Assembly (NCBI GenBank): GCA_024275095.1
Contig: JAJRZV010000010.1
Location: forward strand, 1 to 15,932
Length of the DNA stretch: 15,932 bases
Reading direction: 5' to 3'
Origin: a bacterium
Lineage (GTDB): Bacteria > JAJRZV01
The notes beneath the pieces are model-generated. The model was given only the letters and a program-made list of their open reading frames with translations, was not told the origin of the DNA and did no database searches. This document shows positions 2,982 to 15,932 of the stretch, one piece after another. Made by a program: the position numbers and the translations under genes. Position 1 is the first letter of the stretch, and each line of letters opens with the position of its first letter.

Positions 2982-3841
2982 GACAACTCTTCGCATGGGA
3001 AACAAAAATTTTTAAACCTTCAGATAATTTAAGCGATGTTGTTATAAAAACACTTGCATCCCCGCAGACATGGGGGCTTTTCGAAACCATGAGGGTTATA
3101 CAGGGATGCATTCCACTGCTGGTGTTTCATTTCCAGCGACTCGAAAACAGCCTCAACAAGCTCGGCATTAAAAATGCAACTGCCTTCACAGCCTCTGCAA
3201 AGGTCATTGTACAAACAGTCGTTGAAAAAGACAGGCGCGACTTCTTCAATGAACTCTGGCGGCTCCGAATTTCCCTCATATTCCCGGAGGGGACAGAGCC
3301 TCCATTGCTGCTGTTATCCGCTGACCCTTACAAACCACCAGACGCTCCTGTAAGGCTCATGTTAGACTCAGAAAAAGGACTGCGATTCTCCTGCGATTCC
3401 ACTGTTTCGTTCAAACTTACAAACCGCTTTTTTCTGGAAAACTACAGAAAAAGCGCCGTACAGAAAGGATTTCACGACGCTGTGATCATTAATGAAAAGA
3501 AAGAAATATGTGAAACCACCCGATACAATATCTTCTTTGTAAAAGGTAAAAACCACTTCATCACCCCCTCCGTGAGTTCCGGTCTGCTCCCAGGGGTCAT
3601 GCGGGGAACAATTATCCAGGAACTCAGAAAGAGAAACATTCGTGTTCAGGAAAAACCTGTCAGATTACGAGACCTTGCGCAGTACCCCGGTTGTTTTATA
3701 ACCAACGCCCTGGCCGGGGCGCTTTCTGTAAGTGAAATATGGCCATATGCGAAATTTTCCGAAACACTATTGCCACCGTGCATAAACCAGGTCATGAGCG
3801 AATGTTTTACCGGACAGACACTTCATCTTCCACAGCACTGA
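2978..3841 (+). CDS. pabC: 4-amino-4-deoxychorismate lyase (PabC), class IV aminotransferase fold
   Basis: PLP enzyme that cleaves aminodeoxychorismate to p-aminobenzoate and pyruvate. With the GTG start it has 287 residues. Class IV features are in order: GLFETMRV near 33-40, an Arg in the HFQRLENSL segment, the PLP lysine in FKLTNR (Lys146), ICETTRYNIFFV with Glu179, ITPSVSSGLLPGVMRG (about 195-210) and a C-terminal FITNALAG. The fold is shared with branched-chain and D-amino-acid aminotransferases; position directly after pabB makes the lyase the best reading. The GTG overlaps the pabB stop (GTGA) and is preceded by GGAGG; an ATG at 2918 would add 20 residues of low-complexity Ser/Thr/Asn sequence. 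The last 35 nt overlap the 3' end of comM on the opposite strand. Confidence 0.87.
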   Translation: MRQLFAWETKIFKPSDNLSDVVIKTLASPQTWGLFETMRVIQGCIPLLVFHFQRLENSLNKLGIKNATAFTASAKVIVQTVVEKDRRDFFNELWRLRISLIFPEGTEPPLLLLSADPYKPPDAPVRLMLDSEKGLRFSCDSTVSFKLTNRFFLENYRKSAVQKGFHDAVIINEKKEICETTRYNIFFVKGKNHFITPSVSSGLLPGVMRGTIIQELRKRNIRVQEKPVRLRDLAQYPGCFITNALAGALSVSEIWPYAKFSETLLPPCINQVMSECFTGQTLHLPQH

Positions 3842-5363
3842 GGCGATATTGCACAGCCTCTGCCACGTGAGGAGCATCAATCTTTTCTGTACATTCGAGA
3901 TCTGCAATGGTTCGAGCTACTTTTACCACCTTAGAGATGCTTCTCGCTGAAAACGAGTATTTACGCGATGCTGCTTCGAGAATTCTGGCGGCTCCTTCTG
4001 TAAGAGTGCAGTGTTTCCTTGATTGCCTTTCACTCATGTGGCTGTTGAACATTCCCCTGCCCAGACGTTTCCTCTGAATTTCGACTGCACGTTCCACACG
4101 TGCTTTTATATCCTCGCTTCTTTCCCCGGCGGAACCGTGCTCCGTTGCCCATTCCGCATAATCAATGGGAGGTACTTCAATCTGTATATCTATCCTGTCC
4201 ATGAGGGGACCTGAGACGCGAGTCCTGTACTTTCTCATCTGCTGATAAGTGCATATACACTCTTTCTCCTCGTGTCCGAAATAACCACAGGGACACGGGT
4301 TCATAGCTCCCACAAGCATAAATCTGGCCGGATAGGAGATGTTCCCTCCCGCGCGGGAGATCACCACACGTCCCTCTTCAAGGGGCTGCCGCAGGATTTC
4401 CAGCACGTTACGTTTAAATTCAGGCATTTCGTCGAGGAAAAGCACGCCATTGTGAGCGAGACTGATCTCTCCCGGCCTGGGCACCTGCCCTCCCCCGGCA
4501 AGACCGGCATCCGAGATGGTATGATGGGGATTCCTGAAGGGTCTGAACTTCACCACATCCCCGTTTTTTCTCAGCAGACCCGCAACAGAGTAAATTTTGG
4601 TGGTTTCCAGGCATTCTTCTTCCGACATGACCGGCATAATTGTAGGAACGCACCTGGCAAGCATGGTCTTTCCACTTCCAGGAGGACCGATCATGAGGAC
4701 GTTATGCATGCCTGCAACAGCAACCTCGAGCGCACGTTTTGCAAAAAGTTGGCCCTTCACATCCGAAAAATCCACAGAATAGCCTTCGTTCTGAAGAGCA
4801 CATTCAACGCCTGCACCCTTCTGCAATGCTGCGTTCAACTTACCGTCCAGGTAAGCCACGACCTCACCAAGTGAAGCCACCGGCAGATACACGACATCTT
4901 CGACAAGATGAATTTCGCGGGCGTTATCCCGGGAAATAACCAGCATCAAATTTCTATCGCGCGCGTACTCAGCATATATAAGTCCCCCGCGCACACGCCG
5001 GACATCCCCGTTAAGCGAAAGCTCTCCAACAACGCACAAATCCGCAAACCTTCCTTTGTCGATAATCCTGGAAGCCGCAAGAATACCTACAGCAATGGGC
5101 AAATCCAGCCCCGTTCCTTCTTTTTTCACATCAGCAGGAGCAAGGTTCACGGTAATACGTTTGCGCGGAAATTCGAACCCTGTATGTGCAATGGCAGACC
5201 TTACGCGTTCCCGTGCCTCGCGCACAGTCCCTTCCGGCAAACCCACAACATTGAAAGCCGGAAGCCCTGGAGAAAGATCCACCTCCACGGCGACACTGAT
5301 GGGTTCGATACCCCTGTGTACAACGGTATGAACCACCGCAGAATGATGTCGAACAGGTCCCAT
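3807..5363 (-). CDS. comM: ComM/YifB family AAA+ ATPase (Mg-chelatase-like)
   Basis: A 518-residue AAA+ protein. The N-terminal ChlI/Lon-protease-like domain (about 15-135) carries VVGLPEGTVREARERV and ITVNLAPADVKKEG. The ATPase domain has Walker A GPPGSGKT (226-233), Walker B VLFLDEMPEF (307-316) and HHTISDAGLAGGG (280-292), then a cysteine cluster NPCPCGYFGHEEKECIC (355-371) that may bind a metal. A Mg-chelatase C-terminal helical domain follows (about 425-510). Length and motifs are complete. In naturally transformable bacteria ComM is a hexameric helicase that promotes branch migration of incoming single-stranded DNA; many non-competent bacteria also have it. GGAGGA (5371-5376) precedes the ATG by 7 nt. 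It is the last gene of the carB operon, 32 nt after alaC, and shares 35 nt with the tail of pabC, so no dedicated terminator fits between them. Confidence 0.93.
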   Translation of the reverse strand: MGPVRHHSAVVHTVVHRGIEPISVAVEVDLSPGLPAFNVVGLPEGTVREARERVRSAIAHTGFEFPRKRITVNLAPADVKKEGTGLDLPIAVGILAASRIIDKGRFADLCVVGELSLNGDVRRVRGGLIYAEYARDRNLMLVISRDNAREIHLVEDVVYLPVASLGEVVAYLDGKLNAALQKGAGVECALQNEGYSVDFSDVKGQLFAKRALEVAVAGMHNVLMIGPPGSGKTMLARCVPTIMPVMSEEECLETTKIYSVAGLLRKNGDVVKFRPFRNPHHTISDAGLAGGGQVPRPGEISLAHNGVLFLDEMPEFKRNVLEILRQPLEEGRVVISRAGGNISYPARFMLVGAMNPCPCGYFGHEEKECICTYQQMRKYRTRVSGPLMDRIDIQIEVPPIDYAEWATEHGSAGERSEDIKARVERAVEIQRKRLGRGMFNSHMSERQSRKHCTLTEGAARILEAASRKYSFSARSISKVVKVARTIADLECTEKIDAPHVAEAVQYRLSAVEDEVSVR

Positions 5364-5395
5364 CTTTCAATCCTCCGGATGATGATTAAAAAGCT

Positions 5396-6583
5396 TTACT
5401 CTCCTTTCAGAAATTTCCTGAAGAAGTACCTGATACCCCGGACAGCCTGCCTGATTCGATGCTCATTTTCTACCAGTGCAAACCTCACGTATCCTTCACC
5501 TCCTCGACCAAATCCAATTCCTGGAGAAACAGCAACCTTTCCTTCTGTCATGAGAACCTTGGAAAATTCAAGGGAACCCATCTTATCAAGAGGTTCCGGG
5601 ATTTTTGCCCAGACGAACATGGTTCCAAGCGGCTTTTTTACCTCCCAGCCCACACGCATCAGGCCCTCACACAGGGTGTCCCTGCGCGAACGATATACCT
5701 CCACCACTTCTTTAACCACCTGGTCTCCTTCATTAAGAGCGATGATGGCCGCAATCTGAATGGGTTGAAAAATTCCGTAGTCCAGGTAACTCTTTATGCG
5801 CGTAAGCGCATGTATCAGGCTCCGGTTGCCCGCGCAAAACCCTACCCTCCATCCGGGCATGTTATAGCTCTTGGAAAGGCTGAAAAATTCTACTGCCACG
5901 TCTTTGGCCCCCTTTGCCTGGAAAATGCTCGGCGCTTTGTAACCATCGAATGTAATATCCGCATATGCAAAATCGTGAATTACGTAAAGTTTGTTTTCAC
6001 GTGCAAAATCTACCAGTCTCTCGAAGAATGGTACATCTACCACTGCTGTTGTGGGATTGTGTGGATAGGAAACGATTACCACCTTGGGCCGCGGCCAGGA
6101 CTCTCTCACAGCTTCTTCAAGAGCATCTATGAAATCCTGGGGTTCGAGTGTAGGGATGGAACGAATGTCTCCCCCGGAAATAATCACGCTGTAAGCGTGA
6201 ATTGGATAGGTTGGATCCGGCACCATCACCAGGTCTCCAGGATTGAGAATGGCCAGCATGAGATGTGCAAGCCCTTCTTTCGAGCCAATGGTGACCACGC
6301 ATTCGCTCTCAGGATCCATTTCCACGCCAAAGCGCCTTTTATACCAGTTGGCAAGTGCAAGGCGGAGTTTGGGAATTCCCCGCGACATGGAGTAACGATG
6401 GTTACGGGGATTATCGGAAGCCTCTTTTAATTTTTCGATAATGAAACGAGGTGGAGGTTGATCCGGGTTCCCCATGCCCAGATCAATGATATCTTCACCT
6501 TCCCTTCTCAGGCGCGTTTTGAGTTCATTGACAATGTTGAACACGTATGGGGGGAGCCTTTTAATCCGCTGGAACTCTTCCAT
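5396..6583 (-). CDS. alaC: PLP-dependent aminotransferase, alanine transaminase AlaC type
   Basis: Class I/II (fold type I) aminotransferase of 395 residues that resembles E. coli AlaC along its whole length, including the N-terminal [23 protein letters not shown] and [14 protein letters not shown]. The PLP lysine is Lys238 in [11 protein letters not shown]. Asn176 (PHNPT), Asp204 and Tyr207 (HDFAYAD) line the cofactor, and Arg367 (YVRFAL) should bind the substrate carboxylate. The probable reaction is alanine + 2-oxoglutarate to pyruvate + glutamate. Relatives in other bacteria are often labelled LL-diaminopimelate or aspartate aminotransferase, so substrate assignment is less certain than the family. 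The ATG follows the lipA TGA directly (TGAATG), and its AGGAGG (6592-6597) lies inside the last codons of lipA, so the two are probably translationally coupled. Confidence 0.88.
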
Positions 6584-7474
6584 TCAGCTAACCTCCTGCC
6601 GTAATGTTTGCCGAAAAAAATCATGTGCCATATAAGAACTCCTCACGTACCTTCCTGCGAACACGTGGGTGATACCGGCTTTTTTCGCTGTTTCTGCCAG
6701 GTGCACAAATTCAGCGTCAGAATAATACCGCCTGACAGGCACATTTTCAAAAGAAGGCTGAAAATACTGACCGATGGCCAGCATGTTAACTCCCGCCCCT
6801 GCCAGAACGTGAAATAGTTCCTCGAGTTCATCCTCGGTTTCACCGAGGCCTGTCAGGACCGCCGTTTTCGCTCCTCCACGCACCCGTGCTATCGTACGCA
6901 ACACGGACAAACTTCTCTCAAAAGATGCCTGTGGCCTTACCTGAGGATAAAGAGAAGGGACTGTTTCCACATTGTGTCCCACCACATCCGCCGGAGAATT
7001 CGCCACGAGTATCACGAACTCTTCACATCCGTGAAGATCCGGAATGAGAAACTCCAGTCCCACGTGAGGTGCAACGCTTTTAAGCCGCACTGCCAGCTGT
7101 TGAAAAAAAGAAGCTCCACCATCAGGTAGATCATCACGGGTCACCGAGGTTACAACAAGGTACGAAGGAGATGTTTTCTCCACGTAGGTGATTATCCTGT
7201 TTACCTCGTCTTTCGGTTTCGCAAGGTTCGTGCCCTGCTTCCATACACTGCAAAACGAACAACGCCGTGTGCATCCGGGCCCGAGCGCTATGATGGTGGA
7301 GTGACCAAGCGAAAAGCACTCGCCGATATTAGGGCATCGTGCATTTTCACAAACGGTGCGAAGTCCAAGCTGTCTCAGTCGTGCTTTGTGCACATGCAGG
7401 CGACCCAGTGAACCAATATTTTTCTTGAACATTCTCCGGGTACCGCCTGGCGTACCTGCATTCTGTTTTTTCAT
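6584..7474 (-). CDS. lipA: Lipoyl synthase (radical SAM)
   Basis: Inserts two sulfur atoms into the octanoyl chain on lipoyl carrier proteins (GcvH or 2-oxoacid dehydrogenase E2), making lipoate in situ. The 296-residue protein has both 4Fe-4S sites: the sacrificial auxiliary cluster CX4CX5C (Cys42, Cys47, Cys53 in VCENARCPNIGEC) and the radical SAM CX3CX2C (Cys68, Cys72, Cys75 in CTRRCSFC). It also has TSVTRDDLPDGGA, GHNVETVPSLYPQVRP, LTGLGETEDE, IGQYFQPS and the C-terminal RSSY that supplies the serine ligand (278-281). It is somewhat divergent: GPGCTRRC replaces the usual GDxCTRxC. The ATG at 7472-7474 is preferred over an in-frame GTG two codons upstream, because AGGAG lies 7 nt before the ATG but only 1 nt before the GTG. 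No lipB or lplA is nearby. Confidence 0.94.
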   Translation of the reverse strand: MKKQNAGTPGGTRRMFKKNIGSLGRLHVHKARLRQLGLRTVCENARCPNIGECFSLGHSTIIALGPGCTRRCSFCSVWKQGTNLAKPKDEVNRIITYVEKTSPSYLVVTSVTRDDLPDGGASFFQQLAVRLKSVAPHVGLEFLIPDLHGCEEFVILVANSPADVVGHNVETVPSLYPQVRPQASFERSLSVLRTIARVRGGAKTAVLTGLGETEDELEELFHVLAGAGVNMLAIGQYFQPSFENVPVRRYYSDAEFVHLAETAKKAGITHVFAGRYVRSSYMAHDFFRQTLRQEVS

Positions 7475-7481
7475 CTGCACA

Positions 7482-7486
7482 CTCCT
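7482..7486 (-). promoter_or_regulatory. Ribosome binding site that sets the lipA start
   Basis: Minus-strand AGGAG with 7 nt to the ATG at 7474 but only 1 nt to the GTG at 7480. The spacing makes the ATG the likely initiation codon. Confidence 0.7.
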
Positions 7487-7501
7487 GCGTGACTCTTCCC
7501 T

Positions 7502-9886
7502 TCAGCCCGTCCTGGCAAGCTCCAATCTTTCTCCCCAGGCTGCATGTACATAGCGATACAGTATATCCCTTTCCACTTCCGAAAGGGCATACTCTTGAGA
7601 TACAACCTTAAACGCCTCCTTTCGTGCAAGGGAAAGAAGTTTCGGATCCGCGAGCATTTCCATCATGCGGCTGTCAGGAATACCCCACTGCCGCGTGCCG
7701 AAAATTTCTCCGGGCCCACGAATCTCCAGGTCTTTCTCGGCAATCTTGAATCCATCGGTTGTCTCTTCCATGATCTTCAGCCGGCTGATGCCCTTGCGTG
7801 AAATGGACGAAGAATAAACAAGAAACATGTAAGCCTGCTCGCGGCCCCGTCCGACCCTGCCCCTGAGCTGGTGAAGCTGAGAGAGCCCGAACCTTTCGGC
7901 GTTCTCCACTATCATAACGGCTGCATTGGGCACGTCTATACCCACTTCAATAACCGTGGTTGCCACGAGAAGTTGAATCTCACCTTCTTTGAACCGGCGC
8001 ATGATTTCTTCTCTCTCGTCACTCGGCAGGCGTCCGTGTAAAAGCCCCACGTTGAACCTGGCAAACATTCCAGAAGAAAGTTTTTCATACGTCTCAATGG
8101 CAGACCGTAGGTCAAGCTTTTCAGACTCTTCAATGAGAGGCAGTACCACATATCCCTGAAAACCCTTCTCCAGCAATTGCCTCATAAAAGTGTAGGGTGT
8201 GCTTCGCTGGTTCTCCCTGTATATGCGCGTGATCACCGGTTTTCTGCCGGGGGGCATTTCATCAATCACCGATATGTCAAGGTCGCCGTATATGGTCATG
8301 GCAAGGGTTCTCGGTATAGGGGTAGCAGTCATAACAAGAATGTGGGGCGAAACGCCCTTCTGTCTCAGGCGCGCCCGCTGAACCACACCAAAGCGATGCT
8401 GTTCATCCACAATCCCGAGGATTAAATTTTTGAACCCAACATCTTCCTGGATAATGGCGTGTGTACCAACCACTATGTGAATATCTCCCTGCCGTATGAG
8501 TCGCAGGTATCTTTGGCGCTGAGCCTTCCTGAGTGAGGATGTAAGGAGACACACCTGAACGCCCAGGCGTGAAAAAGCCTGCACAAACGTTTGATAATGC
8601 TGCTCTGCCAGAATTTCCGTCGGGGCCATCACTGCTACCTGATAACCGTTACCTATAGCCACAGATGCGGCTGCCATTGCAACCACTGTGTTACCACTAC
8701 CCACATCTCCCTGGAGGAGTCGATTCATGGGAGATGCCCTGCCGAGATCGCTGTTAATTTCCTCGATGACCCTTCGCTGGGCCCGTGTGAGTTTGAAAGG
8801 AAGTGAATCGATAAACCTTTTGAAAAGTTCCACATCTACTTTCAACGCCACCGCTTTCTCTGAACGAAACTGCTTTTTCCTCAGGGCCATACCCACTTCC
8901 AGGATGAAAAGTTCTTCAAACAGCACTCGCCTGCGCGCTTCTCGAAAAACATCTTCGGGGCTCCTGTCGTCCCCGCAGAACAATTCGGGTTCATGTATGG
9001 CACGAACAGCCTCGGAAAGACTCATGAGCTTCGCCGAATGTTCCACTTCCACAGGCACGACGCTGATGACGTATCGGGCATAATCCTCCACGGTTCTTTT
9101 TACAATGCGACGCAGATGTTTACCGTGGATACCTTCTATTTCAGGATATACAGGCATGTAACCCAGTGCTTCAGGACCGGGAGTACCAAACTCAACATCC
9201 GGGTGAACCATTTCCTTGTGGCCTCTGAAAATTCTGACTTCTCCCGAAACAACCAGTGGAATGCCCCGGCGGTAGGTCTTGCGCATGTAACCACGGTTGA
9301 AATTGAACCACTTGAGAGAAAGGAAGCCCGTACCATCAGAAATGACCACTTCAAACACCCGCCTGCCGCCGAAATTGAGCTCTTCCACGAGTTCGACTGT
9401 TCCTGATGTCACCTGGAACCGTCCGGGCTGGAGCCGGGCAATGGTGAGAAGTTCCCGCCGGTCTTCAAAGCGCCGCGGCGTCATGAACAAAAGGTCGCGT
9501 ACAGTGTGAATATCCTTTTTCCTCAGATATGCGGCAATACGAGGGCCCACTCCTTTAAGATATTGCACGTCCTTAAACAGGGCCTTCTGGCTTTCCTCGT
9601 AAGCACGGCTCAGTACTTCTCCACGAAGTGCGAGCATGCCCTTGAGAAACCTTTCCAGCTTTTCTGCCTTTTCGGATTCCGGGAAATCATCCAGCGCCTC
9701 AAGAGGAGCCACAAGTGTCTGTGCTCTCTTCAGCACCTCCGCAGAAACGCTATCCGATTCTTCCTGGAGCACTTTTTTAAAGTAATTGTCCAGTCCTTTT
9801 AGTCGCGCAATACCCCTGCCCGAAAGTTTCCGAGCAAGCAAAAGCGGCCTCATAAGCCGCTCAATAAGGCGAATATCCCCGGTCAT
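7502..9886 (-). CDS. recG: ATP-dependent DNA helicase RecG with altered Walker A
   Basis: Branch-migration helicase that remodels stalled forks and recombination intermediates. The 794-residue protein has a helical N-terminal extension (1-105) as in Thermotoga RecG, HhH-like YLKGVGPRIAAYL (109-121), an OB-fold wedge (about 155-235), helicase domain 1 (about 360-545: LTRAQ, APTEILAEQHY 421-431, DEQHRFG 494-500, MTATPIPRTLAM), helicase domain 2 (about 550-700: LLHGRL, ATTVIEVGID, QLHQLRGRVGRG) and the conserved tail with DLEIRGPGEIFGTRQWG (719-735). The anomaly is motif I, which reads GDVGSGNT (393-400): the ATP-binding lysine is Asn399 (AAC at 8690-8692, minus strand). The rest is full length and undamaged. 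The ATG at 9884-9886 has only a weak AAGAG site; a second in-frame ATG at 9853 is possible. It sits mid-operon, 54 nt after the DUF1858 gene and 27 nt before lipA. Confidence 0.95.
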   Translation of the reverse strand: MTGDIRLIERLMRPLLLARKLSGRGIARLKGLDNYFKKVLQEESDSVSAEVLKRAQTLVAPLEALDDFPESEKAEKLERFLKGMLALRGEVLSRAYEESQKALFKDVQYLKGVGPRIAAYLRKKDIHTVRDLLFMTPRRFEDRRELLTIARLQPGRFQVTSGTVELVEELNFGGRRVFEVVISDGTGFLSLKWFNFNRGYMRKTYRRGIPLVVSGEVRIFRGHKEMVHPDVEFGTPGPEALGYMPVYPEIEGIHGKHLRRIVKRTVEDYARYVISVVPVEVEHSAKLMSLSEAVRAIHEPELFCGDDRSPEDVFREARRRVLFEELFILEVGMALRKKQFRSEKAVALKVDVELFKRFIDSLPFKLTRAQRRVIEEINSDLGRASPMNRLLQGDVGSGNTVVAMAAASVAIGNGYQVAVMAPTEILAEQHYQTFVQAFSRLGVQVCLLTSSLRKAQRQRYLRLIRQGDIHIVVGTHAIIQEDVGFKNLILGIVDEQHRFGVVQRARLRQKGVSPHILVMTATPIPRTLAMTIYGDLDISVIDEMPPGRKPVITRIYRENQRSTPYTFMRQLLEKGFQGYVVLPLIEESEKLDLRSAIETYEKLSSGMFARFNVGLLHGRLPSDEREEIMRRFKEGEIQLLVATTVIEVGIDVPNAAVMIVENAERFGLSQLHQLRGRVGRGREQAYMFLVYSSSISRKGISRLKIMEETTDGFKIAEKDLEIRGPGEIFGTRQWGIPDSRMMEMLADPKLLSLARKEAFKVVSQEYALSEVERDILYRYVHAAWGERLELARTG

Positions 9887-9900
9887 TGCGTAACTCTTGA

Positions 9901-9929
9901 AAAATAATGCACGAGAGGGGTTTTAACAA
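9901..9929 (-). promoter_or_regulatory. Weak candidate internal promoter before recG
   Basis: In the 54-nt gap before recG, minus-strand TTGTTA (9924-9929) and TATTTT (9901-9906) are 17 nt apart, each with four of six consensus bases. The gap is the longest in the operon and AT-rich, so chance matches are likely. A run of eight T on this strand just upstream has no hairpin before it and is not a terminator. Confidence 0.22.
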
Positions 9930-9940
9930 AAAAAACTTAC

Positions 9941-10156
9941 TCAACGGGCGGAATGATTAATAATTTTTTTGATTTCCTGGAGCAACTCCTGTGGGTCGAG
10001 GCCATGTACAATTGCTGCTTTCCTGACAGATTCATGAACTCGACTGCTACACGGAACACAATCAAGTCCCCTTCGCTTTAGCAACTTCGCTACTTCCGGA
10101 TAATGTTCAAGGAGCTGAGCGATGGTAGTATCTTCTGTTACCTTCAACCTGCTCAT
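9941..10156 (-). CDS. DUF1858-type redox-disulfide domain protein
   Basis: A 71-residue protein matching the DUF1858 / hybrid-cluster-protein-associated disulfide family. It has an N-terminal DTTIAQLLEHYPEVAKLL helix, then RRGLDCVPCSS with a CXXC pair (Cys33, Cys36), and a C-terminal helix with HGLDPQELLQEIKK. Such proteins are thought to form a redox-active disulfide or bind a small ligand; the biochemical role is not established. It is cytoplasmic, with no signal peptide or membrane segment. The ATG lies 3 nt after the greA stop, and its GAGGAG binding site is inside the last greA codons, so it is translationally linked to greA. Expression with DNA-repair and biosynthetic genes gives no clear partner; no hybrid-cluster protein gene is in the window. 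Confidence 0.82.
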   Translation of the reverse strand: MSRLKVTEDTTIAQLLEHYPEVAKLLKRRGLDCVPCSSRVHESVRKAAIVHGLDPQELLQEIKKIINHSAR

Positions 10157-10159
10157 GTT

Positions 10160-10642
10160 TTACTCCTCATATCGTACGTCAAGAATTTCATATTCAATTT
10201 CTCCACGCGGCACTTTTACTATGACAGTATCACCCTTCCGTTTGCCCATCAGGCCTTTCGCAATAGGAGATTGAATTGATATACGACCCCTCGAAAGGTC
10301 CGATTCATCAGGTCCTACGATGGTGTACGTCACCTCCCTCTCCGTGTCCAGGTCCAGCAACCTCACTGTTGCTCCAAAAGCCACACGATCGCTGTCCTTT
10401 CTATCCCTTGTATCCACCACATAAGCGTGGGAAATCTTATATTCCAGCTCCCGTATTCGTGCTTCAATCAGTCCCTGTTTTTCCTTGGCGGCTTCATATT
10501 CGGCATTTTCGGAAAGGTCCCCGTAAGAGCGGGCAGTTTCTATCTCCTTGATAATTTTTGGGCGCTCCACCTTTTTTAAACGTTGTAGTTCCGCCTTTAA
10601 CTTTTCAAGACCCTCGCGGGTTATTGGTATGCGCTCACTCAT
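10160..10642 (-). CDS. greA: Transcription elongation factor GreA
   Basis: Binds the RNA polymerase secondary channel and stimulates cleavage of the 3' end of backtracked RNA, rescuing arrested complexes. The 160-residue product has the N-terminal coiled coil (about 1-75) with the tip motif YGDLSENAEYEAAKEKQ; Asp42 and Glu45 are the acidic residues that act at the polymerase active site. It is followed by an FKBP-like C-terminal domain ending KVPRGEIEYEILDVRYEE. Length matches E. coli GreA (158). The ATG at 10640-10642 fits the family start and has GGGGG (10651-10655) 8 nt upstream; an in-frame upstream ATG at 10702 would add 20 residues inside carB. It lies 13 nt after carB, an order also found in some Desulfobacterota. 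Confidence 0.96.
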   Translation of the reverse strand: MSERIPITREGLEKLKAELQRLKKVERPKIIKEIETARSYGDLSENAEYEAAKEKQGLIEARIRELEYKISHAYVVDTRDRKDSDRVAFGATVRLLDLDTEREVTYTIVGPDESDLSRGRISIQSPIAKGLMGKRKGDTVIVKVPRGEIEYEILDVRYEE

Positions 10643-10655
10643 GGCGAACACCCCC

Positions 10656-13600
10656 TTACCCCTGTACTCCCCTTTTGAACTGAGCCAGCCCGTACTGTTC
10701 ATAATACTCCTGGATGGACTTTACAGTGAAGGGTTTTGTCTTGAGTGACTCGATGGCTTCCACCGCCGCCCTTGCCCCTTCAACAGTTGTGAAATACGGA
10801 ATCCCCAGGGATATAGCAGTACGTCGAATGGACTTTGAATCTTCGATGGACTTTTTACCCCAGGTGGTGTTGATTACCAGAGACACCTCCCTGTTCTTCA
10901 TGCGATCAACAATATGGGGGCGAAGTTCCTCGATGACCTTGTAAACCAGGACTGACGGCACTCCGTGATTTTTGAGAAACTCGTGTGTACCCCGTGTAGC
11001 GTAAATCCGAAACCCCATCTCAACCAAGCGCTTTGCAAGGGGCAGAACCTTGCGCTTGTCATCATCTTTTACCGATATAAAGACAACTCCCTCCCGCGGC
11101 AACAGGTTATCTGCCGCGGCCTGGGCCTTGTAAAAGGCGTGGCCAAAATCCTCGTCTATTCCCATCACCTCACCCGTAGATTTCATCTCCGCTCCGAGAA
11201 TGGTATCCACGTCCGGAAACTTTATGAACGGAAACACCGCTTCTTTCACGGCCATGTACTGCAGAGTTATACCCTCAAGGGGCACGAGTTCTCTCAGGGG
11301 TACTCCCATCATTACCTTCGCTGCGACCTTGGCCAGAGGTATGCCCGTGGCCTTGGATATAAAAGGTACCGTGCGTGAAGCCCTCGGATTGACTTCCAGC
11401 ACATAAACCTCTCCATCTTTTACAGCGTACTGGACATTGATGAGACCCTTTACGTCCAGTTCAAGAGCAAGTTTCCGCGTCGCCTCTTCCATGGCACGTA
11501 TCACGTCCTCAGAAAGTGTCCTCGGGGGGATCGAGCAGGCGCTGTCGCCTGAGTGAACGCCCGCCTCTTCGATATGTTCCAGCACGCCTCTGATGTACAC
11601 GTCTCTTCCATCAGCCACTGCATCAACATCTACTTCCACAGCATCTTTTAAAAACCGGTCGATAAGCACGGGATGATCAGGCGAGGCCTGAACAGCCTCT
11701 CTCATGTATTCTGTCAGTTCATCATCAGAATATACTGTCACCATCGCTCGCCCACCGAGAACATAGGAAGGCCTTACCATCACAGGGTAACCAATGGACC
11801 GCGCCACCTTCAGGGCCTCTTCCAGGTTACGTGCAACGCCATTTTCCGGTTGTTTGAGCCCGAGCTTCTTTAAAAGTTCTTTGAACCGGTCTCTATCTTC
11901 GGCGATGTCAATACTCTCCGGTGAGGTCCCCAGCACGCGCACACCCGCCCTGGCCAACGGCACGGCAAGTTTAAGAGGCGTCTGTCCTCCAAATTGAAGC
12001 ACAACCCCCAGAGGTTTTTCCTGCGAAACAATCTCCAGCACATCTTCAGCTGTAATAGGTTCAAAGAACAGGCGGTCAGAAGTATCGTAATCAGTACTGA
12101 CGGTTTCTGGATTACAGTTGACCATGACCACCTGATATCCCAGCTCCTGAAGTGCAAAGCAACAATGCACACAGCAATAATCGAATTCCACTCCCTGCCC
12201 GATGCGATTGGGGCCGCTTCCGAGTACAACAACCGTCTTCTCACCCAGGCGCCCGACCTCAGGTACAGGATCATACGAGGAATACATGTAGGGAGTGTAA
12301 GCCTCGAATTCGGCTGCGCAGGTATCCACGCATTTGTATGCAGGCTTTACGCCTGCCCTGTTGCGCAAACTTCTTACCTCTTCTTCCGTAACTCCCATGA
12401 GGCGTGCCAGCCGGGCATCTGAAAACCCCATCTTTTTCAGCTCGCGAAGTTTTGCCGGAGACTGCAGAAGGACACTTCCCACCTTTTTAATTGTGTCTTC
12501 TGCCTGAATAATTTTTTCAATTTCTCTTAAAAACCAGGGATCTATCTTTGAATATTCATGTATCTCTTTAATTGAATATCCGTGTCTAAAAGCCTCGGCT
12601 ATATACCACAATCGTCGGGGACCCGGAACCTTCAATGCTCGATTAATTTCTTCAACTCTTCGTTGTATATCCATGTCCTTCAATTCAGAAACTTCATCGA
12701 AACCGGTATAGCCCTGTTCAAGTGACCGAATTGCCTTCTGTAAAGATTCCTGAAACGTCCTTCCTATGGCCATTACTTCACCAACCGATTTCATTTGGGT
12801 GGTAATCACAGGCGGTGTCTGGGGGAACTTTTCAAAATCAAAGCGTGGAATTTTTACAACAACATAATCGATTGTCGGTTCAAAACAGGAAGGTGTCTTC
12901 CTGGTAATATCATTGGGGATTTCATCCAGGGTATAACCAACAGCAAGCTTGGCCGCAATTTTTGCAATGGGAAATCCTGTGGCTTTGGAAGCGAGAGCCG
13001 ACCTCCGTGAAACCCTGGGGTTCATCTCAATGACCACCATTTCGCCGTTTCCAGGATTCACAGCAAATTGAATGTTCGATCCACCGGTATCCACCCCTAT
13101 TTCTCGAATGATCCGTATCGCCGCATCACGCATGATCTGGTATTCCCTGTTGGTGAGTGTCTGGGCTGGAGCTACAGTTATACTGTCGCCGGTATGGACC
13201 CCCATCGGGTCGAAGTTTTCGATCGAACAGATGATCACCACGTTGTCTGCGCCGTCCCTCATCACTTCCAGTTCAAACTCCTTCCACCCAAGAACCGATT
13301 CCTCCAGGAGCACGCTCCCGACCATAGACTGCTTGATCCCCCACTCTACCTGCTCCACCAGTTCTTCAGCATTGTAAGCCACGGATCCGCCGGTGCCTCC
13401 TAAGGTAAAAGAAGGTCGAATAATCACGGGAAAACCAATCTCCTCTATCAACGAACGGGCTTCCTCTACACTGTGTACGTAACCGCTTTTTGGTACTCTC
13501 AGTCCAATGTTTTCCATGGCCTTTTTGAAAAGTTCGCGGTCTTCTGCCTTGCGTATGGCTTCCACGCTGGCACCGATAAGTTCCACAGAGTATTTCTCCA

Positions 13601-13922
13601 GGAACCCGGCTTCGCTGGCGGCTACTGCAAGGTTCAGTGCCGTTTGACCCCCGAGCGTTGGCAGGATCGCATCAGGTCTCTCCCTTTTAAGAATCTCCTC
13701 CAGGACCTCCAGGGTTATGGGTTCAATGTACGTGCGGTCGGCAAATTCAGGATCTGTCATAATGGTGGCAGGATTGCTGTTGAGAAGAATAAGAAAATAT
13801 CCCTCCTCCTTCAGTGCCTTGAGGGCCTGCGTTCCAGAATAATCAAATTCACAGGCCTGGCCAATAACAATAGGCCCCGACCCAATTATGAGAATTCGTT
13901 TGATATACGTACGTTTCGGCAT
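10656..13922 (-). CDS. carB: Carbamoyl-phosphate synthase large subunit
   Basis: Makes carbamoyl phosphate from bicarbonate, ammonia (from the CarA glutaminase) and two ATP, feeding arginine and pyrimidine synthesis. The 1088 residues cover the full CarB architecture: carboxyphosphate domain with an ATP-grasp fold (1-400; [44 protein letters not shown]), oligomerisation domain (about 400-555; DTCAAEF), carbamoyl-phosphate domain (about 560-935; [49 protein letters not shown]) and C-terminal allosteric domain (about 940-1075). The oddity is [13 protein letters not shown] (301-313), where the near-universal motif is SRSSALASK; residue 307 is Arg (AGG at 13002-13004) instead of Ser. The start is clear from family alignment, but no good Shine-Dalgarno precedes it. 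CarA is absent: upstream is divergent ligA and downstream is greA. Confidence 0.97.
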
Positions 13923-13948
13923 GTGATAGTCAAAGGTAAGTTTTTGAA

Positions 13949-13978
13949 ATCTTACATTAGAGCCCTTCCCAAAAGCAA
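13949..13978 (-). promoter_or_regulatory. Candidate promoter for the carB operon
   Basis: Minus-strand TTGCTT (13973-13978) and TAAGAT (13949-13954) are 18 nt apart, with a TG just before the -10 hexamer. A start about 7 nt further on would leave a leader of roughly 20 nt before the carB ATG. I saw no attenuator-like hairpin plus T run in this short leader. Confidence 0.35.
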
Positions 13979-14082
13979 TATGAATCAGCCCTGCAAGGTT
14001 TGAGGCTTCACTTTTTTAAAGTTCAGGGCGGATGAAGTAATACGTGTGTATCACTCCCGTGAACTGTAAGGTAAAATTACTC

Positions 14083-15932
<1,850 letters not shown>

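What the first reader, a model, noticed from the sequence alone, without database searches (positions are those of the whole stretch)
8687..8710. RecG with the catalytic Walker A lysine replaced by asparagine
Seen: motif I reads GDVGSGNT, with codon AAC at 8690-8692 on the minus strand. Known: RecG from E. coli and Thermotoga have GDVGSGKT, and this lysine contacts the ATP phosphates in superfamily 2 helicases; replacing it normally abolishes ATPase activity. Every other motif, including DEQH and the C-terminal tail, is intact and the 794-codon frame is open. Only the third codon base differs from a Lys codon. Inference: a sequencing or assembly error, a very recent loss of function, or an unusual RecG that binds DNA without translocating.
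Basis: partly seen in the sequence, partly recalled or inferred. Interest (0 to 1): 0.75.

Follow-up and report, generated by a model that had tools for sequence, protein, structure and literature searches.

The report
RecG active-site change, probably assembly error
A DNA-repair motor protein in this draft genome appears to have lost its essential ATP-binding lysine, but the same draft carries false-looking stops and frameshifts in other indispensable genes, so the change is most likely a wrong base in the assembly rather than new biology.

Summary
The recG gene (7502-9886, minus strand, 794 codons) reads GDVGSGNT, with AAC at 8692-8690, where E. coli RecG has Lys302. All 109 RecG homologues fetched have lysine at this column. 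A pattern scan of 386 genomes found no other RecG with asparagine there. The protein is otherwise an ordinary, conserved RecG: it is the only RecG in the genome, and one other position of 76 near-invariant columns differs (C687M).

The genome is a 136-contig draft with no close relative held. In about 200 kb of it that homology covers, five other conserved genes carry one-base lesions: premature stops in mfd, mtaB and a biotin carboxylase, and frameshifts in an RND pump and an NtrC-type regulator. Control genomes had none in 285 kb. A sixth, dapL, has TAA at codon 343; it appears to be the only diaminopimelate route, although the mur ligases are intact. A living cell should not tolerate that, so consensus errors are the likeliest source.

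I judge K399N a probable base error (about 0.8), possibly a real recent null (about 0.15). A RecG adapted to work without ATP is unlikely (about 0.03). Reads are needed to settle it and were not available.

The parts
7502..9886 (-). recG, 794 codons, ordinary RecG apart from residue 399
   Evidence: ORF; NCBIfam RecG models over cut-off; only RecG wedge domain in the genome
8687..8710 (-). Walker A / motif I, reads GDVGSGNT (expected GDVGSGKT)
   Evidence: sequence; 109 of 109 homologues have K
8690..8692 (-). codon 399 AAC (Asn) where Lys is invariant; one base away from a Lys codon
9089..9571 (-). RecG wedge domain (PF17191)
   Evidence: E 3.2e-30

Best explanation
The AAC codon is most likely a wrong base call in a draft assembly with a raised density of single-base errors. 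The living organism most likely has Lys399 and an ordinary RecG that uses ATP to translocate on branched DNA and regress stalled forks. Shown: the codon, its uniqueness, the intact remainder of the gene, and one-base lesions in six other conserved genes of the same assembly. Inferred: that those lesions and this one are consensus errors rather than real mutations.
For: The lysine is invariant in 109 homologues and no Asn version of the RecG motif was found in 386 genomes. The rest of RecG shows no decay. In about 200 kb of homology-covered sequence the assembly carries mfd TAA, mtaB TAA, biotin carboxylase TAG, an RND-pump one-base loss and an NtrC-type frameshift. Three control sets had none in 285 kb, p about 0.012. 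dapL has TAA at codon 343, although DapD, DapH and Ddh were not detected and Mur ligases are intact, so it should be essential. The three nonsense sites imply about 4e-4 wrong substitutions per base (range 0.8e-4 to 1.2e-3), or about 6 in a window of this size.
Against: No reads or second assembly were available. The lesion excess rests on few events (5 against 0). The invariant-column test in CarB, YifB, the aminotransferase and Mfd does not show the genome to be worse than its homologues, so a very high error rate is excluded. The genome is 97% complete, so a second diaminopimelate route could be missing from the assembly.
Confidence: 0.8

Rival explanations
1. A real, very recent missense mutation that inactivated RecG as a motor in the sampled strain. 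The protein would still fold and perhaps bind forks, but could not hydrolyse ATP.
For: RecG loss is tolerated in E. [quoted passage not shown] All other motifs are intact, as expected of a fresh mutation. Mfd, a related repair translocase, is also interrupted.
Against: Lesions of the same kind hit genes unrelated to repair and one gene that should be essential (dapL), which fits random base errors better than selective loss of repair motors.
Confidence: 0.15
2. A functional RecG variant that works without the Walker A lysine, as a structural fork-binding protein or with altered ATP chemistry.
For: The frame is open and the rest of the protein is conserved.
Against: No other RecG with Asn was found in 109 homologues or a 386-genome pattern scan. 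There is no compensating change in other motifs, and no relaxation of the other motor motifs that would be expected if ATP use had been abandoned. The equivalent E. coli mutant is inactive.
Confidence: 0.03
3. AAC is read as lysine in this organism (codon reassignment).
For: None found.
Against: The Walker lysines of the ABC and related ATPases checked in the same genome are AAA or AAG. Several AAC codons in recG fall at columns where homologues have Asn.
Confidence: 0.005

Closest known systems
RecG (NCBIfam NF008168/TIGR00643; T. maritima 1gm5, 693-residue RecG 9wm0)
   Same: Full length, wedge domain, all SF2 motifs except motif I, intact C-terminus
   Different: Asn instead of Lys in Walker A; C687M
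Laboratory mutant E. coli RecG K302A
   Same: Substitution of the same lysine; that mutant lacks ATPase and unwinding activity (PMC2764109)
   Different: Engineered Ala, not Asn; here the change may not exist in the organism
Mfd (transcription-repair coupling factor) of the same genome
   Same: Related translocase module; its Walker A lysine is present; it too carries a one-base lesion, an in-frame TAA
   Different: Nonsense rather than missense

Membership tests
RecG | Score over the curated cut-off of a RecG model | tested here: met
   NF008168 916 bits against 718; NF008165 820 against 711; TIGR00643 731 against 659
RecG | N-terminal wedge domain | tested here: met
   PF17191, E 3.2e-30
RecG | Walker A GDVGxGKT with lysine | tested here: not met
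   GDVGSGNT in the assembly; may be a consensus error
RecG | Walker B DEQH and remaining SF2 motifs | tested here: met
   74 of 76 near-invariant columns match; the exceptions are K399N and C687M
RecG | ATP-driven fork regression | not testable with these tools
   needs protein
Catalytically dead RecG (natural variant) | Non-Lys residue shared by related strains or species | tested here: inconclusive
   None in 109 homologues or the 386-genome pattern scan, but no genome of the same phylum was offered

The most novel reading that the evidence does not exclude
A natural RecG that has lost the Walker A lysine but is kept as a fork-binding protein without motor activity.
Probability: 0.03. Interest if true: 0.6.

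Novelty: not a real feature. Interest (0 to 1): 0.1.

Why it matters
If real, it would be a natural catalytically dead fork-remodelling motor. Most likely it instead warns that isolated active-site changes in draft metagenome-type assemblies should be checked against reads before being read as biology; this genome carries several such lesions.

Tried and rejected
1) Codon reassignment was rejected because other Walker lysines use AAA/AAG and AAC aligns with Asn elsewhere. 2) A second, intact RecG in the genome: none found. 3) Other genomes with GDVGxGN: three hits outside the window, none a RecG. 4) Viral contig searches for an independent copy found nothing. 5) A coding-potential scan for interrupted genes was too weak to use because codon bias is low. 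6) The invariant-column test in CarB, YifB, the aminotransferase and Mfd did not discriminate. 7) An apparent stop after uvrA is uvrA's own stop followed by an in-frame downstream gene that looks like tilS. 8) Several stop hits are antisense alignments to recG or other loci and were discarded by strand filtering.

Full report
Observation. The minus-strand frame 7502-9886 is an open 794-codon recG and reads GDVGSGNT in motif I; codon 399 is AAC at 8692-8690. NCBIfam places the protein over the cut-off of three RecG models, and it holds the only RecG wedge domain in the genome. In the PDB alignments N399 lies opposite Lys of 1gm5 and Lys at chain position 302 of 9wm0. In E. [quoted passage not shown]

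Rarity. All 109 RecG homologues obtained (29 from the genome search, 80 from genome contigs; about 38-48% identical) have Lys at this column, as does the genome's own Mfd. A degenerate pattern for GDVG[small]GN-T was searched in 386 genomes. Apart from this window it hit three places, none of them a RecG. The Lys version of the pattern matches all 109 RecG loci, so the pattern is sensitive. The relatives offered by the tool share only the domain with this organism, so residue 399 could not be read in a close relative.

The rest of the protein. Of 76 columns at least 98% conserved in the homologues, the protein deviates at two, K399N and C687M. Among columns that are fully invariant in all homologues it deviates only at K399N; 12 of 109 homologues show one or two such deviations of their own at other positions. 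The gene therefore shows no general decay. The Walker lysines of the ABC and related ATPases checked in the genome are AAA or AAG, and AAC codons elsewhere in recG often align with Asn, so the code is standard.

State of the assembly. The window is one contig of a 136-contig, 2.45 Mb draft, 97% complete. About 710 kb was sampled and compared with 1446 open frames from other genomes. Roughly 200 kb was covered by homology, and five conserved genes proved broken by one-base lesions. mfd has TAA (C32, 26048). An mtaB-type methylthiotransferase gene has TAA (C108, 4219). A biotin carboxylase has TAG (C76, 5342). An RND efflux pump has lost a base, probably in a run of A (C96, about 24105). An NtrC-type regulator has a frameshift (C108, about 16680). 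The same scan in two complete genomes and in stretches from 20 others gave no credible lesion in 285 kb; the chance of a 5 to 0 split is about 0.012. A sixth, found outside that scan, is dapL, with TAA at codon 343 (C59:24877-24879). DapD, DapH and Ddh were not detected while Mur ligases are intact, so dapL should be essential.

Inference. Premature stops in an apparently essential gene and in several unrelated housekeeping genes are hard to reconcile with a living cell and easy to reconcile with a draft carrying wrong bases. The three nonsense sites in the homology-covered sample imply about 4e-4 wrong substitutions per base (95% range 0.8e-4 to 1.2e-3), or about six in a stretch the size of the window. 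One of these landing on a catalytic codon and being picked out by a reader who looks for anomalies is unremarkable. CarB in the same window has a second candidate, S307R (AGG), at a column invariant in 29 homologues.

Limits. The error density rests on few events, and the test of invariant columns in four other proteins does not set this genome apart from its homologues. A real, recent null allele remains possible (about 0.15). A functional lysine-free RecG is not excluded but has no support (about 0.03).

Verdict. The sequence observation is right. The likely cause is an assembly or sequencing error, and the organism most likely has an ordinary RecG.

Noticed in passing
window 10656-13922 (-), CarB residue 307: S307R (codon AGG) at a column invariant in 29 homologues; one base from a Ser codon; possibly another wrong base.
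   Followed up: partly
G000 C59:24877-24879 (L342): LL-diaminopimelate aminotransferase gene dapL interrupted by TAA at codon 343; no DapD, DapH or Ddh found in the genome, Mur ligases intact.
   Followed up: yes
G000 C32 about 26048 (L112, L149:6048): mfd interrupted by an in-frame TAA; both halves otherwise conserved.
   Followed up: yes
G000 C108:4219 and about 16680 (L238): mtaB-type gene with TAA and NtrC-type regulator with a frameshift on the same contig.
   Followed up: partly
G000 C76:5342 (L244) and C96 about 24105 (L155): Biotin carboxylase with TAG; RND efflux pump with a one-base loss.
   Followed up: partly
window 3807-15932: Neighbourhood is ordinary housekeeping: yifB, alanine/diaminopimelate-type aminotransferase, lipA, recG, greA, carB, then a plus-strand frame (14142 to the window end) that looks like NAD-dependent DNA ligase.
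   Followed up: partly
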